From Acanthacorydalis orientalis (lineage: Eukaryota > Arthropoda > Insecta > Megaloptera > Corydalidae), in contig CM068315.1 in assembly GCA_034766995.1 (NCBI GenBank), positions 19,439,010 through 19,503,009 on the forward strand: DNA of 64,000 bases, given 5' to 3'. The notes under the pieces were generated by a model, which was given only the letters and a program-made list of their open reading frames with translations, searched no databases and was not told the origin of the DNA. This document shows positions 26,345 to 59,661 of this stretch, in pieces; positions within the stretch are counted from its first letter, which is position 1; each line of letters begins with the position of its first letter. The translations under genes and the position numbers were made by a program.

Positions 26345-27601
26345 ATTACGTGTACAAATTAATTCGGTGCCTTTAAATTGAATCAATCATAACTCTGTTT
26401 TAAATTAAAATATTTTCTCATCGTTTTAGAATTTTGAAATTCCAATCATAAAATTTAAAAATACTACATATCTTAGCCAAGTAGTTAATACACCTCACAA
26501 AACAAGGGTAAACATGATGGCGTCTGAAAAGCAGCATATTAAGCATTGCATACTTTTCGCATTTCAGTTGAAAAAAATGCTTCCGAAGCCGCGGAAATGA
26601 TTGGTTTAGCTTTGTAGGAAGCTGTTATGACGGATAAAATATGCATTTTATGACTTTAAAGATTTTGGGGTGTTGATTTTACGCTTTCCTATCGAAAGCG
26701 TATGGAAAAACACGAAAAATTTGATGATGCGGAGCTTGAGCAGCTGTTAAATGACAATTCCGTTTACATTGAACAGGAACTCGCTCAATGACTCGAAGTT
26801 ACCCAGCAAGCAATTTTCTGTCTACATCGGCTGGAATAAATTCAAAAGCTAGGTCGATGGATTCCACATGAGCTCAGCCCGGAAAGCAGAGAAAGAAGAT
26901 GCGACACATCTATGTCCTCGATCGCAAGTTTCAAAATGAATAATTTTTTGCATAAAATCATAACCGGGGATGAAAAATGGGTTTTGTACAATACCAAGCG
27001 CCGAAAATCATGGGTTACTTCTGGTGAAACGTCAACATCGATTTCGAAACAAAATATCTATGCCAAAAAAATGATATTGTGTATTTGGTGGAGCATTAAG
27101 GGTGTGGTGTATTATGAGTTGCTGAAACCTAATCAAACTGAAAATTCAGAACGTTACTGACAACAACTCACCCTTTTCAGTAACGAATTAGAGAAAAAGA
27201 TATTTTTCACTGGCGAGGGAACGAAGAAAATCATTTTATAGCACGACAACGCTCGGCCGCATATCGTAAAAGTAACCAAAGATGTTATTTGTTCGTTTGG
27301 CCGGAAAGTTCTCCCTTATGGGGGAGGGGGTATTCATTACAACTATTATTATCACCTGTTCCACTCGCTCTAGCATCCTCAGGCTGATGCCCATTTTAAA
27401 ACAATAAGGGGTCCGAAAATGGATTGACGACTTCGTAAACTCAAAGCCGCCATATTTTTTTCAACAAGGAATTCTTCAGTTACTCGAAAGATAGAGCAAA
27501 ATTTTACAAAATAATGGGGGATATTTTCAGGATTAAAATGTATTTCATTTTCCCGCAAATAAACATTCAAAAAAAGGCACTGAATTAATTTGTACACCTA
27601 A
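26345..27601 (+). mobile_element. Decayed mariner (TTAGGTGTACAAATTAATTC family)
   Basis: The ends are ttacgtgtacaaattaattc and its counterpart (gaattaatttgtacacctaa). The plus-strand transposase starts near 26517 (MASEKQHIKHCILFAFQLKK) and includes LGRWIPHELSPESRERR, FLHKIITGDEKWVLYNTKRR, IWWSIKGVVYYELLKPNQTE (in 26912-27160) and HDNARPHIVKVTKDV near 27240. The third catalytic region is lost near 27310. It has multiple stops and is inactive. Confidence 0.88.
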
Positions 27602-45873: not shown

Positions 45874-47128
45874 TATTAAGGCCATTTGATAAGTTTGGTA
45901 AATTTTTATGAGATGGCGCCACTTTACCTATGACGCCACCATTTATTTGGTAACGTCACGGCTATTAAGTGTCACTTTACAAACTAGCATAGGTATAATT
46001 GCAACCACAAGCAACATGTTGTTCACGTTCTACAGATGATTCAAGCGAGCATTGTAGCAGTAGCCTCAAAAATGAAAAAAAACGTGTTCCGTGCAGTGAT
46101 AAAACATTTTTATTTGAAACGTGGACGGCCGCCCAGATCAAAGCGGAGTTGGATGAAGTTGATGGGGACTCTGCATCAGCGTTGAAGACTTTATTTCTGG
46201 ATAAATGAGTATAACAGTGGCCGAACAAGCACTGAAGTTGAAGCGCGGTCTGAAAGCCCAGTTGAGGTCACCACGACGGATATCGTTGAAAAAATCCATA
46301 GTATCGTTATGGAAGAGCGTCGAATAAAAATGAGCGAGACTGCTGAGAATGTAGGCATCTCAACTGAACAAGTGGACAATATTCTGCATGAAAAATTGCA
46401 CACAAAACAGTTGTGTGCCCGGTGGGTGCCACAATTATTGACTGTTGATCAAAAATGCACACGAAACGACACTTCAACCCAGTGTTTGGCGATGTTTAAT
46501 CGAAATTCGCAGCCCTCTTGCATCGATTCGTCACCGTGAATGAAACATGGATCCATCACTATACACATGATTCGAAGAAGCAGTCAAAGCAATGGACAAC
46601 GATTGGTGAAAAAGCGCCGACGAAAGGAAAGACCGTTTTGTCTACTGGGAAGGTGATGGCCACTGTTTTATGGAATTCCCAAAGAGTCATCCTGATCGAT
46701 TACTTAACGAAGGGAAAACGATAACAGGAGCCTATTATGCAATATTATTGAATCATTTGAAAGAAAAGCTTAAACAAAAATGGCCAAGATTGGCGCACAA
46801 AAAAGTGCTCTTTCACCAAGACAACGCGCCGTCCCATAAATTAACCATCGCAATGGTAAAGTTGCACGAATTAGGATTCGAATTGATTTCTTATCCACCC
46901 TATTCTTCGGACATGACCCCGTACGACTTCTTCCTCTTCCCAAAATTGAAAATTTGTCTCGGTGCGAACAAATTCTCGTCGAATGAGGATGTCACTGTCG
47001 CCGTCAATGCGTATTTCACAGACTCGCTGTATGACCCTCAATGGGAACTATGTTAAGAAATAAAATCTTTTTTTAAAAAAACGGTGTTTACCTTACTTTT
47101 TTACCATACTTATCAAACGACCCTCGTA
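45874..47128 (+). mobile_element. Decayed mariner, same TACGAGGGTCG family, plus orientation
   Basis: A 1255-bp copy whose right end (ttatcaaacgaccctcgta) matches the family exactly and whose left end (tattaaggccatttgataag) has drifted. Transposase pieces in three frames: TWTAAQIKAELDEVDGDSAS (from 45999), a second HTH-like piece (46309-46539), VNETWIHHYTHDSKKQSKQW (46518-46724), and HKKVLFHQDNAPSHK through YDFFLFPKLK (46670-47056). The first catalytic aspartate (D-E-T-W) is asparagine. It lies in the intron between exons 44549-44725 and 47542-47599 of the phosphatase gene, on the other strand. Confidence 0.9.
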
Positions 47129-54671: not shown

Positions 54672-55711
54672 AATAACGTGTCGATACTCGTGTTGTATAG
54701 CGTTTGCGCTAAACACGAAATTATTATAGTGTAGATCTACTCAAGTATAATTTTAATCTTTTCATTTTTTTAAAAAAAGAAAAACTAGTATTCTAAATAG
54801 TCAAAAAATTTCGAAAATTAGTCAAAATTCACTCATTTTAACTATTAAAAATTATGACAAGAATTTATCTTATACGAAGGTCGTTTGATAAGTATGGTAA
54901 TAAAGCAAATTAAACGCTGTTTTTTGAAAAAAAATGATTTTATTTAACATAGTCTCCATTAAAGGCTATACACTCGGCCCAGTAAATTTCCAATTATTTC
55001 ATTCCATCGGAAAAGTATCTTTTTCCAAAGTCTGCAAAATACACATTGACGACGGCGATGACATCCTCATTCGACGAGAATTCCTTCTTATCGAACCAAA
55101 TTTTCAAATTTGGGAAGACAAAAAAATTCGCACGAGACAAAGTCCGAAGAATATGGTGGATAAGGAATCAATTCAAAGGCTAATTCGTGAAATTTTGCCA
55201 TTGCAACTGTCGATTTGTGGGATGGCGCATTGTGCTGATGAAAGAGTACATTTTTGTGCGCCAATCTTGGCCGTTTTTGTTTAAGCTCTTCTTTCAAACG
55301 GTTTAATAATGTTGCATAATATGCTCCTTTTATCGTTTTTCCCCTCACTAAGTAGTCGATCAGAATGATTTCTTGAGAATCCCAAAAAAACAGTGGCCAT
55401 CACCTTCCTAGCCAAAAAAACAGTCTTCACCTTCTTCGGTGCATTTTCACCGGTCGTTGTCCATTGCTTTGACTGCTGCTTTGACTCAGATGTAGTGAAT
55501 GGACCATGTTTCATCCACGGTGACGAATCGACGTAAGAAGGCATGCGGATTGAGATCAAACAAGTTAGGTTAAAATGTCCTTTTGTGTGTTAAACAGGTT
55601 AAGTTAAAATGTCGTTTTTGGTTGACAATCAACAATCGCGACACCTATCACACACAGCTTTTCATGTGCAATTTTTCGTGCAGGATATTGTGCACTCGTT
55701 CAGTTGAGATA

Positions 55712-57004
55712 ACAGGTGGGCTGAAAAGTTCGTAGGCTGACACATATATGGCGCTACTAGTATCAAATCCATATGATTTTTAGTTAGCCCTAACCTTCAA
55801 AAGACGCGTGTATAAATTTGACAGCTGCTGCACTATTAGTATCTGAGTTATAGCCTTTTTAGTGAAAGAACTTTTGTTACCTTGAAAAAATGGATAAAAA
55901 GGAATTTCGTGTGTTAATAAAGCATTGCTTTTTGGTGAAAAAAAATACTGTTGAAACCAAGGCTTGGCTTAATAAACATTATTCGGACTCTGCACCAGGA
56001 AAATCAACCGTAGAGAAGTGGTTTGCTAAATTTAAACGAGGCGAAATGAGCACCGAGGACGATGCACGCAGTGGACGCCCCAAAGACGCTGTTACCGACG
56101 AAAACATCAAAAAAGTCCACAAAATAATTTTTGATAACCGTAAAGTGAAGTTGATTGAGATAGCTGAGACACTAAAGATATCAAAGGAACGTGTTGGTCA
56201 TATCGTGCATGAATATTTGGATATGCGAAAGCTCTGTTCAAAGTGGGTGCCGCGCGAGCTCACAATCGACCAAAAACAACAACGAATCGATGATTCTAAG
56301 GAGTGTTTGGAGCTGTTCAATCGTAATAAATCCGAATTTTTGTGTCGATATGTGACGATAGATGAAACATGGCTCCATCATTTCACACCGGAGTCCAATC
56401 GACAGTCAGCCGAGTGGACTGCACGTGATGAACCGACTCCAAAGCGTGGAAAGACGCAAAAGTCGGCTGGCAAGGTTCTGGCATCAGTATTCTGGGATAC
56501 TCATGGTATAATATTCATTGACTATCTTAAAAAGGGAAAAACCATAAACAGCGACTATTACGTAGCGTTATTGGAGCGTTTAAAAGACGAAATCGCGAAA
56601 AAGCGGCCTCATTTGAAGAAGAAGAAAGTGCTGTTTCATCAAGACAATGCACCGTGTCACAAATCAATGAAATCGATGGCGAAATTGCAAGAATTGGGCT
56701 TCGAATTGCTTCCGCATCCACCGTACTCTCCAAATCTGGCCCCCAGCGACTTTTTTCTGTTCTCAGACCTCAAGAGGATGCTCGCTGGACGGAAATTTTG
56801 CTCCGATGAAGAGGTAATCGCCGAAACTGAAGCCTATTTTGAGGTTAAAGACAAATCGTATTATAAAAATGGTATCGAAAAATTGTATGACCGCTATAAT
56901 CGTTGTATCGCCCTCGAAGGGAACTATATTGAATAATAAAATCAAATTCTATCAAAAAAAAAATTTTTTTCTATGCAAGCCTACGAACTTTTCAGCCCAC
57001 CTGT
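55712..57004 (+). mobile_element. Complete, apparently intact mariner (Himar1/irritans type)
   Basis: A 1293-bp element flanked by TA on both sides (55710-55711 and 57005-57006). Its ends are perfect 27-bp inverted repeats beginning ACAGGTGGGCTGAAAAGTTC. It contains one uninterrupted transposase frame (55890-56933 plus stop). It sits inside, and on the opposite strand from, the decayed mariner at 54873-57478, so it is the younger insertion. Its length, end sequence and protein all match the irritans subfamily that includes Himar1 of the horn fly. No damage is visible. Confidence 0.95.
55890..56936 (+). CDS. Mariner transposase, 348 aa, DD34D triad intact
   Basis: The protein cuts and pastes its own mariner at TA sites. 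It has two N-terminal helix-turn-helix regions that bind the inverted repeats (residues about 1-110, including ALKISKERVGHI-like ETLKISKERVGHIVH), the linker WVPREL at 119-124, and the DDE domain. By my count the catalytic aspartates are D158 (VTIDETW), D252 (HQDNAPCH) and D287 (APSDFFLF), with 34 residues between the last two, the mariner hallmark. The conserved YSPDLAPSD reads YSPNLAPSD here, one change at a usually conserved but non-catalytic residue. The length of 348 residues equals that of Himar1 transposase. The start is the first ATG (aaaaatgg), 178 bp into the element. There is no stop or frameshift, so it could be functional. Confidence 0.95.
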   Translation: MDKKEFRVLIKHCFLVKKNTVETKAWLNKHYSDSAPGKSTVEKWFAKFKRGEMSTEDDARSGRPKDAVTDENIKKVHKIIFDNRKVKLIEIAETLKISKERVGHIVHEYLDMRKLCSKWVPRELTIDQKQQRIDDSKECLELFNRNKSEFLCRYVTIDETWLHHFTPESNRQSAEWTARDEPTPKRGKTQKSAGKVLASVFWDTHGIIFIDYLKKGKTINSDYYVALLERLKDEIAKKRPHLKKKKVLFHQDNAPCHKSMKSMAKLQELGFELLPHPPYSPNLAPSDFFLFSDLKRMLAGRKFCSDEEVIAETEAYFEVKDKSYYKNGIEKLYDRYNRCIALEGNYIE

Positions 57005-57862
57005 TACCTACAGTCTGAGAAATCTCGCGCATTTTCACTCAGCGGTCTTCCATAACGATACCATGGATTCTTTCAACAATATCCGTCGTGATGATTTAAA
57101 ATGGGCGTTCAGAACGCGTTTCATCTTCAGTGCATATTCGGCCACGTTTAAACTCATTTATCGAGAAATACACAGCCTTCAACGCTGATGCAGAGTCACC
57201 ATGAACTTCATCCAACTCCGCTTTGATCTGGGTGGCCGTCCACATTTTCAAATAAAAATGTTTTATCACTGCATGTAACTCGTTTTTTTTTCATTTTTGC
57301 GACAACTGTTATAATTATCGCTTCAAACATATGTAGAACATGAATAACGCGTCGCTTCTGGCTGAAATTTCGCCTATACTTATGATTGCAAAAGCGACAC
57401 TTGATATCCGTGACGTTACCAAATGAATAGTGACGCCATATCATAGAAATTTACCAAAATTATCAAGCGACCCTCGCACTAATTTAAACAAATACGATAG
57501 ACAAAGTCAAAAATAATCATGACTTTAAAGACTTAAATATAAGTTTATCTTTTTATAAGCACATATAAATTTCAATTTTTGATAATTTCCACATTTACTT
57601 TCTCTATTTTTACATAATTGTGGCTACTTGTACATTTTTACTCAATTATCAACGATAAATGGTGTGTAAAAATAGATGTATTACAAATATATATTATAAA
57701 ATAGATGTATTACAAACGTAATCAACGGTCAGGTTAAAACATCATTAAACATGTATGTATAAATAAAAATATTTTTTAGAAAATGTGATTTAAGTGTATG
57801 TAATCGTGATTTCAGTAATATATTTTGATAGAACAAGAAATAATGTACATACACATTAGCAT

Positions 57863-58719: not shown

Positions 58720-59661
58720 ATCAAATAAGGTTCTGCGATTTTTTAATATGCGATAATTAAACAATTGCAAAATTTGTCATAATTTTTTTTATTCATTAAA
58801 ATTAGCACCTTCAAAATCTACAACCTTTTCCAAACGAGAAACAAGTATGTAAATCGCGTGTTTTTAGAAGTAAAAAACCTACCAACTTGCTGCAATCTCT
58901 GTTTTGTTGTGGAACTGTCTATTTCGCAAGTGATTATCAAGCACCAAGAAAAGGTCATAATCGCTTGAAGAACTTTGAAGAGAATATAGAGCATGACGCA
59001 GTATCTCCCATTCCAAACCATGAATCTTCTTCTCACGTATAAGTATTACAGTATGAGGTCTTGCATTGTCCTGCAAGAATAAGGTTTTGCAGTACCGCAA
59101 ACTTCAAAGGCACCACTTTACTCATAGAAGTGTATGCTTTGTGTATGGTGAACTCCAGCCAGGATTGTTCACTACGAGTTTCTCGCTACAGGCCAAACAA
59201 TTACGGTCGAGATCTATTGTATGTAACTCGAGCGTGTGAAGGATTCGTTACTTAAGAAACAGTCAACACTAGTTAATCGAAAGCAAATGCTATCTTGCAG
59301 GACAATACAAAACCTCATACTGCAATATTTGAGAAGATGCGTGCTTTAAAATGAGAGATACTGCCTCATCCTCCATATTCTCCTGAAATGTCTCCAAGCA
59401 ATTATCACCTTTTCTTGGCGTTAGACAATCACACACGAAATAGACAATTCTACAATAAAACAAATTAAAGCGGAGGTTGGTAGGTTTTTTACTTCTAGAC
59501 GAAACGTTTTATAAAAACGGAATTTACAAACTTGTATCTCATTGAAAAAAGATTGTAGATTGTGAGGGTGCTTATTTTAATGAATAAAAGGTTTTATGAA
59601 AATTTTTGCACTTATTTAATTTTTATTATAAAACCCCGCACGAATTTTTTTAGTTGCCTAA
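58713..59661. mobile_element. Fold-back mariner: two C-terminal halves in inverted orientation
   Basis: The ends (taaggtaatcaaataaggtt; complement of tttttttagttgcctaa) are mariner-like and TA follows on the right. The left arm (58713 to about 59090) encodes, on the minus strand, LFLQDNARPHTVILIREKKI and LVLDNHLRNRQFHNKTEI. The right arm (about 59285-59661) encodes the same region on the plus strand: LQDNTKPHTAIFEKMRALK, LPHPPYSPEMSPSNYHLFL and LDNHTRNRQFYNKT. About 190 bp of unrelated sequence lies between. Neither arm has a DNA-binding domain. Confidence 0.8.

What the first reader, a model, noticed from the sequence alone, without database searches (positions are those of the whole stretch)
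55712..57004. Apparently intact, potentially active Himar1-type mariner
The ends are perfect 27-bp inverted repeats, TA duplications are on both sides, and a 348-codon transposase has no stop or frameshift, with D158, D252 and D287 in the mariner DD34D spacing. Every other transposon in the window is visibly broken. It must have inserted recently relative to its decayed host element. Strong resemblance to a mariner first described from a fly suggests horizontal arrival.
Basis: partly seen in the sequence, partly recalled or inferred. Interest (0 to 1): 0.75.

Follow-up and report, generated by a model that had tools for sequence, protein, structure and literature searches.

The report
Himar1-like mariner from a past burst
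This is an ordinary full-length jumping gene of the mariner type, one of many nearly alike copies that seem to have spread through this animal's genome in one past wave; this copy can still be read in full but carries a change in a part of its enzyme that its relatives keep unchanged, so it is probably no longer able to move itself.

Summary
Window 55712-57004 is a 1293-bp mariner with perfect 27-bp terminal inverted repeats, TA on both sides, an unbroken 348-codon transposase and a correct DD34D triad (D158, D252, D287). It sits at one TA of an old, decayed mariner. "Potentially active, recent" is only partly supported. In the window's own genome (548 Mb) the searches returned 75 distinct places with near-identical copies, out of several hundred or more unscored candidates. 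In the less biased sample 23 near-full-length copies differ from the majority by 1.0% per free site with variance equal to the mean, as one short pulse would give (older copies are under-sampled). Changes after insertion look neutral (N/S 2.34; 2.66 expected). No copy with fewer than 4 changes from the majority was seen, and no identical copies at separate sites, so there is no sign of ongoing transposition. The window copy is typical, not specially young. It alone has Asn for the Asp of the YSPDLAP motif: Asp in 120 of 120 relatives with a residue there, GAT in 45 of 47 readable genomic copies. Horizontal arrival is plausible but untested. A new member of a well-known kind; low interest.

The parts
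55710..55711 (.). TA target-site copy, left
   Evidence: read directly; empty-site alignment
55712..55738 (+). left terminal inverted repeat, 27 bp
   Evidence: 27 of 27 complementary to the right end
55890..56936 (+). transposase ORF, 348 codons plus stop; HTH_48 at residues 3-52, Transposase_1 and DDE_3 domains
   Evidence: Mos1 alignment E 6.5e-54
56361..56363 (+). catalytic D158 (Mos1 D156)
   Evidence: Mos1 residue names from a passage of PMC4344528
56643..56645 (+). catalytic D252 (Mos1 D249)
56733..56735 (+). N282 codon (AAT): Asn where relatives have the Asp of YSPDLAP
   Evidence: D in 120 of 121 other rows, one gap; private to the window among 51 distinct genomic copies: GAT 45, GAG 1, AAT 1, gap 4
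56748..56750 (+). catalytic D287 (Mos1 D284)
56978..57004 (-). right terminal inverted repeat, 27 bp
57005..57006 (.). TA target-site copy, right
   Evidence: read directly
54873..57478 (-). old, decayed mariner that received the insertion, split by it; its own imperfect ends at 54873-54900 and 57451-57478
   Evidence: tblastn pieces with stops and frame changes; 79% DNA identity to the copy at 46 kb across the junction; end search

Best explanation
An irritans-subfamily (Himar1-like, DD34D) mariner that moves by ordinary cut and paste into TA: transposase binds the 27-bp ends, cuts, and inserts with TA duplication. The family multiplied in this genome in one short pulse, when a working copy (or several) supplied transposase. 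After insertion the copies decayed without detectable selection. The copy at 55712-57004 is a typical product of that pulse, caught before a stop or frameshift arose, but it is probably a defective source of transposase because of D282N and other private changes, while its perfect ends could still be moved in trans. Shown: anatomy, clean insertion, family, mostly star-like divergence, near-neutral decay, private D282N. Inferred: loss of activity, cut-and-paste route, a single pulse and its end.
For: Anatomy. Clean TA insertion into a decayed mariner. Genome search: 2050 candidate places, 40 scored, all 40 matching (nearly) full length at 98-100%, the window itself included. In 30 of these loci, TA on both sides in 24 of 30, an open 348-codon frame in 14 of 30, mean pairwise difference 1.41%; no shared flank of 150 bases or more reaches the same junction except in one duplicated pair, L013/L014. 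Private changes among 29 copies: 103 nonsynonymous, 44 synonymous, 8 stops; N/S 2.34 against 2.66 expected if neutral. Less biased sample: 23 copies with more than 1200 aligned bases, 5 to 19 changes, variance/mean 1.00. Tree: the window lies in a 37-row clade, support 97, that also holds the Himar1-like P0017.
Against: The effect of D282N was not measured, and none of the passages I saw tests this position. Copies were chosen by score or by a 70-base match, which strongly under-samples older copies, so the missing old tail and part of the tight spread may be due to sampling. Among 29 copies, 28 columns have a minor state in two or more copies, so the family is not a perfect star. By overall conservation the copy is no more damaged than most relatives. 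One assembly cannot show insertion polymorphism. The full copy number is unknown: 369, 1681 and 2050 candidates, of which 40 were scored each time.
Confidence: 0.9

Rival explanations
1. The copy is a currently active, autonomous mariner.
For: Unbroken frame, intact triad, perfect ends, TA on both sides. It departs from strongly conserved columns (97% or more) only once; 74 of 109 full-length rows, itself included, have one departure or none.
Against: That one departure is at a column that is Asp in 107 of 107 other full-length rows with a residue there. Five of its six private coding changes alter the protein. No close twin among the copies scored. It is not among the youngest: 9 of 23 sampled copies have as few or fewer changes.
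Confidence: 0.07
2. The family came by recent horizontal transfer from another arthropod and burst on arrival (compatible with the best explanation).
For: Only young copies among those seen. Closest proteins are 94% identical in unnamed sources, and 89% over 295 residues in the spider Trichonephila clavipes. Such transfers and bursts are described for other mariners (PMC4678618, abstract and passages; PMC6307670, passages including the abstract's).
Against: Host species unknown here. No comparison with host genes at silent sites was possible. The searches favour young copies, so older relatives in the genome are not excluded. A vertical lineage with one surviving master could also burst.
Confidence: 0.6
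3. The 348-codon frame is kept because the host uses the protein.
For: Open frame of 348 codons or more in 18 of 51 distinct copies.
Against: N/S of private changes is near neutral. Neutral simulation keeps the frame free of stops in 68% of cases at 1% divergence, indels not counted.
Confidence: 0.02

Closest known systems
Himar1 (horn fly, irritans subfamily mariner; the working version is a reconstruction, PMC5490172 passage)
   Same: 348 aa, DD34D, WVPREL, TA target, 27-bp ends (Himar1's details recalled); same supported clade; 80.5% protein identity to letters recalled from memory
   Different: About 20% protein difference; ends match Himar1's recalled end at 19 of 27; YSPNLAP instead of YSPDLAP
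Rpmar5 (Rhodnius prolixus irritans mariner, Table 1 of PMC4678618, passage)
   Same: 1285 bp, irritans, similar end: 25 of 33 positions
   Different: 32 copies, listed there as having no potentially active copy; the protein was not compared here
Rpmar0 of Rhodnius and Mariner-2_DF of the fire ant (passages)
   Same: One mariner family with hundreds to thousands of copies from a recent expansion; horizontal transfer proposed
   Different: The fire-ant family has sets of identical copies and is polymorphic; here no identical copies with separate flanks were seen
Mos1 (solved structures 3hos, 5hoo)
   Same: Aligned end to end by sequence, HTH and catalytic triad included
   Different: mauritiana subfamily (recalled), distant in sequence

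Membership tests
mariner (DD34D, Tc1/mariner) | Asp triad with 34 residues between the second and third | tested here: met
   D158, D252, D287
mariner (DD34D, Tc1/mariner) | short terminal inverted repeats and TA duplication | tested here: met
   27 of 27; TA on both sides
mariner (DD34D, Tc1/mariner) | Mos1-type HTH and transposase domains | tested here: met
   PF17906, PF01359, PF13358 above cut-off
mariner (DD34D, Tc1/mariner) | YSPDLAP motif (signature, not a strict criterion) | tested here: not met
   YSPNLAP in this copy; GAT at codon 282 in 45 of 47 readable genomic copies, so it is a decay change within the family
irritans subfamily, Himar1 lineage | groups with Himar1 in a protein tree | tested here: met
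   37-row clade, support 97, with P0017; the Himar1 label of P0017 rests on recalled letters
currently active transposon | identical copies at different sites | tested here: not met
   nearest scored copy to L004, the least changed one, is 51 bits below its self score (40 of 1681 candidates scored); only L013/L014 are identical and their flanks are duplicated too
currently active transposon | excision or insertion in an assay | not testable with these tools
   bench test needed
horizontally acquired element | silent-site divergence between hosts lower than that of host genes | not tested
   host unnamed; DNA of relatives not held

The most novel reading that the evidence does not exclude
A mariner family that entered or awoke once, inserted nearly all its copies in one sharp pulse (change counts indistinguishable from a single Poisson) and was then shut off, with the surviving young copies confined to about one zone per chromosome. 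It would be a clean natural clock of a complete transposon invasion and its silencing.
Probability: 0.3. Interest if true: 0.3.

Novelty: new member of a known kind. Interest (0 to 1): 0.15.

Why it matters
It corrects a natural reading error: an open frame, perfect ends and an intact triad do not make a mariner active. The copy is a good example of decay after a burst, and the family could date an invasion once the species and its mutation rate are known. Otherwise mariner bursts of this sort are documented in insects.

Tried and rejected
Considered and dropped: that the third catalytic Asp was the one changed to Asn. The Mos1 alignment, with the Mos1 residues named in a passage of PMC4344528, puts the third catalytic Asp at D287, which is intact.

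Searches elsewhere: the protein in viral and prokaryote contigs gave 3 and 28 pattern matches, none confirmed as a relative; the 27-bp end in viral contigs and its inner 25 bases in prokaryote contigs gave none; phages gave none; plasmids gave two hits, one split in two pieces, one covering 20%. The window has no Rfam match at gathering scores and no tRNA.

Host identification: nuclear copies of mitochondrial COX1 read with the invertebrate code gave mixed named matches: a true bug at 85%, a fly at 91% over 95% of the query, and a record labelled Octopus at 84%. The order is unresolved. Stretches around two RNA polymerase hits were read but not searched, because pieces do not find full-length relatives.

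An exact count of TA plus TIR sites in the genome could not be had: searches did not complete.

Rows dropped: of 1169 protein hits only the 120 listed were used. L014 (same as L013, flanks duplicated) was left out. In some searches, eight repeats of an element already present were removed to give 51 distinct copies; for the dispersion test 23 of the 29 cut-out copies other than the window were kept, the six with 1200 or fewer aligned bases dropped. In the placement test 44 of 46 places were used; two lie on contigs whose length I did not have, and the duplicated pair L013/L014 counts twice.

Full report
What is there. The window holds a complete mariner at 55712-57004 (1293 bp). The two ends are 27-bp inverted repeats that match at 27 of 27 positions and then diverge. 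TA flanks both ends. The ORF 55890-56936 encodes 348 residues. Pfam finds the Mos1-type HTH, Transposase_1 and DDE_3, all above cut-off. Against Mos1 the protein aligns from residue 3 to 348 (E 6.5e-54), and D158, D252 and D287 fall on the catalytic triad with 34 residues between the last two.

The insertion site. The flanks belong to an older mariner on the minus strand. Taking out the element and one TA leaves a sequence that aligns without a gap at the junction to a second old copy at 46 kb, at 79% identity. Its worn ends lie at 54873-54900 and 57451-57478. So the element arrived by a clean TA insertion, long after the host element's lineage had begun to diverge.

Residue 282 is Asn in the motif YSPDLAP. 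Among 121 other rows (120 listed database proteins of 1169 hits, and the recalled Himar1) the column is Asp in 120 and a gap in one. Mos1 and SETMAR also have Asp there. Among 51 distinct copies of the family in this genome, codon 282 is GAT in 45, GAG in 1, AAT in the window copy alone, and missing in 4. The change is therefore private to this copy among those seen. Its effect is inferred, not measured: the residue lies five positions before the third catalytic Asp, and the motif is described as a mariner signature (passages of PMC5490172, and PMC4777549). Other private protein changes are A16V, R152C, M157I and A319V. On the other side, the copy is no more damaged overall than most relatives: one departure at columns conserved at 97% or more, where 74 of 109 rows, itself included, have one or none.

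The family in its own genome. The window lies in G000, 548 Mb in 27 contigs, at C3:19439010-19503009. A search with the element gave 2050 candidate places; 40 were scored and all 40 match over (nearly) the full length at 98-100%, the window itself being the 100%. together name 75 distinct places (counted from the lists typed into; some of them matched over the 70-base query only). In the 30 loci cut out, TA stands on both sides in 24, the 348-codon frame is open in 14, and the mean pairwise difference is 1.41%. No shared flank of 150 bases or more reaches the same junction in two loci, except for L013 and L014, which are one duplicated stretch. So these are independent insertions, not satellite copies.

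Age and tempo. The first set was ranked by similarity, which favours little-changed copies. A second set was taken with a 70-base internal query: 369 candidates, 40 scored, 37 of them equal in score and listed by place; 30 were cut out, the window among them. Seven of the other 29 were already in the first set. Of the 29, 23 have more than 1200 aligned bases; they carry 5 to 19 changes from the majority, mean 12.3, variance 12.3, ratio 1.00; that is 1.0% per site outside the 70 bases. This is what one short pulse followed by random decay gives. Two cautions: a 70-base match is rarer in older copies, so an old tail would be largely missed, and among 29 copies of the first set 28 columns show a minor state in two or more copies, so there is some substructure. 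The window copy has 10 changes; 9 of 23 have as few or fewer, so it is typical. The fewest changes seen in a full-length copy is 4 (L004). A search with L004 found its nearest relative 51 bits below its own score, with 40 of 1681 candidates scored, so no near-ancestral or identical copy came up although the ranking favours such copies. With a mutation rate of about 3e-9 per site and generation (recalled, not from a call), 1% is some three million generations. Private changes in 29 copies count 103 nonsynonymous, 44 synonymous and 8 stops; N/S 2.34 against 2.66 expected from the same mutation spectrum, and stops per synonymous change 0.18 against 0.19. No selection on these frames is visible. 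A simulation shows that at 1% divergence 68% of copies would still be free of stops, indels not counted, so an open frame here says little about activity.

Relatives. In a tree of 120 proteins the window falls with P0002/P0003 (94% identity, sources unnamed) and P0079 at a support of only 80, near two Trichonephila spider proteins (84), within a 37-row clade of support 97 that also holds the Himar1-like P0017. The term 'Himar1-type' is thus fair at subfamily level, with about 20% protein difference. The ends match the recalled Himar1 end at 19 of 27 and the published Rpmar5 end at 25 of 33 positions. Horizontal transfer is reported for such elements (passages; abstract), but the host here was not identified and no silent-site test was possible.

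Place in the chromosomes. Of 46 copies found by the full-length queries, the 44 that lie in eight contigs of known length are far closer together within each contig than uniform placement would give: summed distance to the median 74 Mb against 415 Mb, 0 of 5000 simulations. Examples are C9 0.2-3.5 of 37.9 Mb and C11 2.4-6.5 of 29.7 Mb; one copy at C8 0.2 Mb lies apart from the others at 11.9-14.1 Mb. Low-recombination regions around centromeres would explain this, but no centromere was mapped, and the selection of best-scoring copies may add to it.

Verdict. A real, complete, ordinary mariner of the irritans subfamily, one of many from what looks like a finished pulse; probably not autonomous today. 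Confirmed as an observation, partly supported as an interpretation, low in interest.

Noticed in passing
window, e.g. 9507-8959, 12275-11378, 15952-15155, 24406-23663, 26732-27319, 46072-47017, 59298-59575: Many decayed mariner remnants, some close to and some far from this element in sequence (tblastn), as in a graveyard region.
   Followed up: partly
G000, eight large contigs: Young copies of this family lie mostly in one zone per chromosome; possibly pericentromeric retention.
   Followed up: partly
G000, whole genome; L032-L035: 88 matches to COX1 in the nuclear contigs, most with in-frame TGA, several alike on C13: many nuclear mitochondrial copies, some perhaps amplified.
   Followed up: no
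L018, 2810-3341: A truncated second copy (element positions 761-1293, 98%) lies in opposite orientation, 17 bases from a full copy.
   Followed up: no
L013 and L014 (C9:265953-267245 and 237639-238931): Identical copies with 99.87% identical flanks in opposite orientation: a recent inverted local duplication or an assembly artefact.
   Followed up: no
L001 3551-4592 (NZ_CP135988.1, Proteus mirabilis plasmid pRM2023): A mariner-type transposase match in two pieces, 60.8% identity, in a plasmid record that also lists predicted resistance genes. Described only.
   Followed up: no
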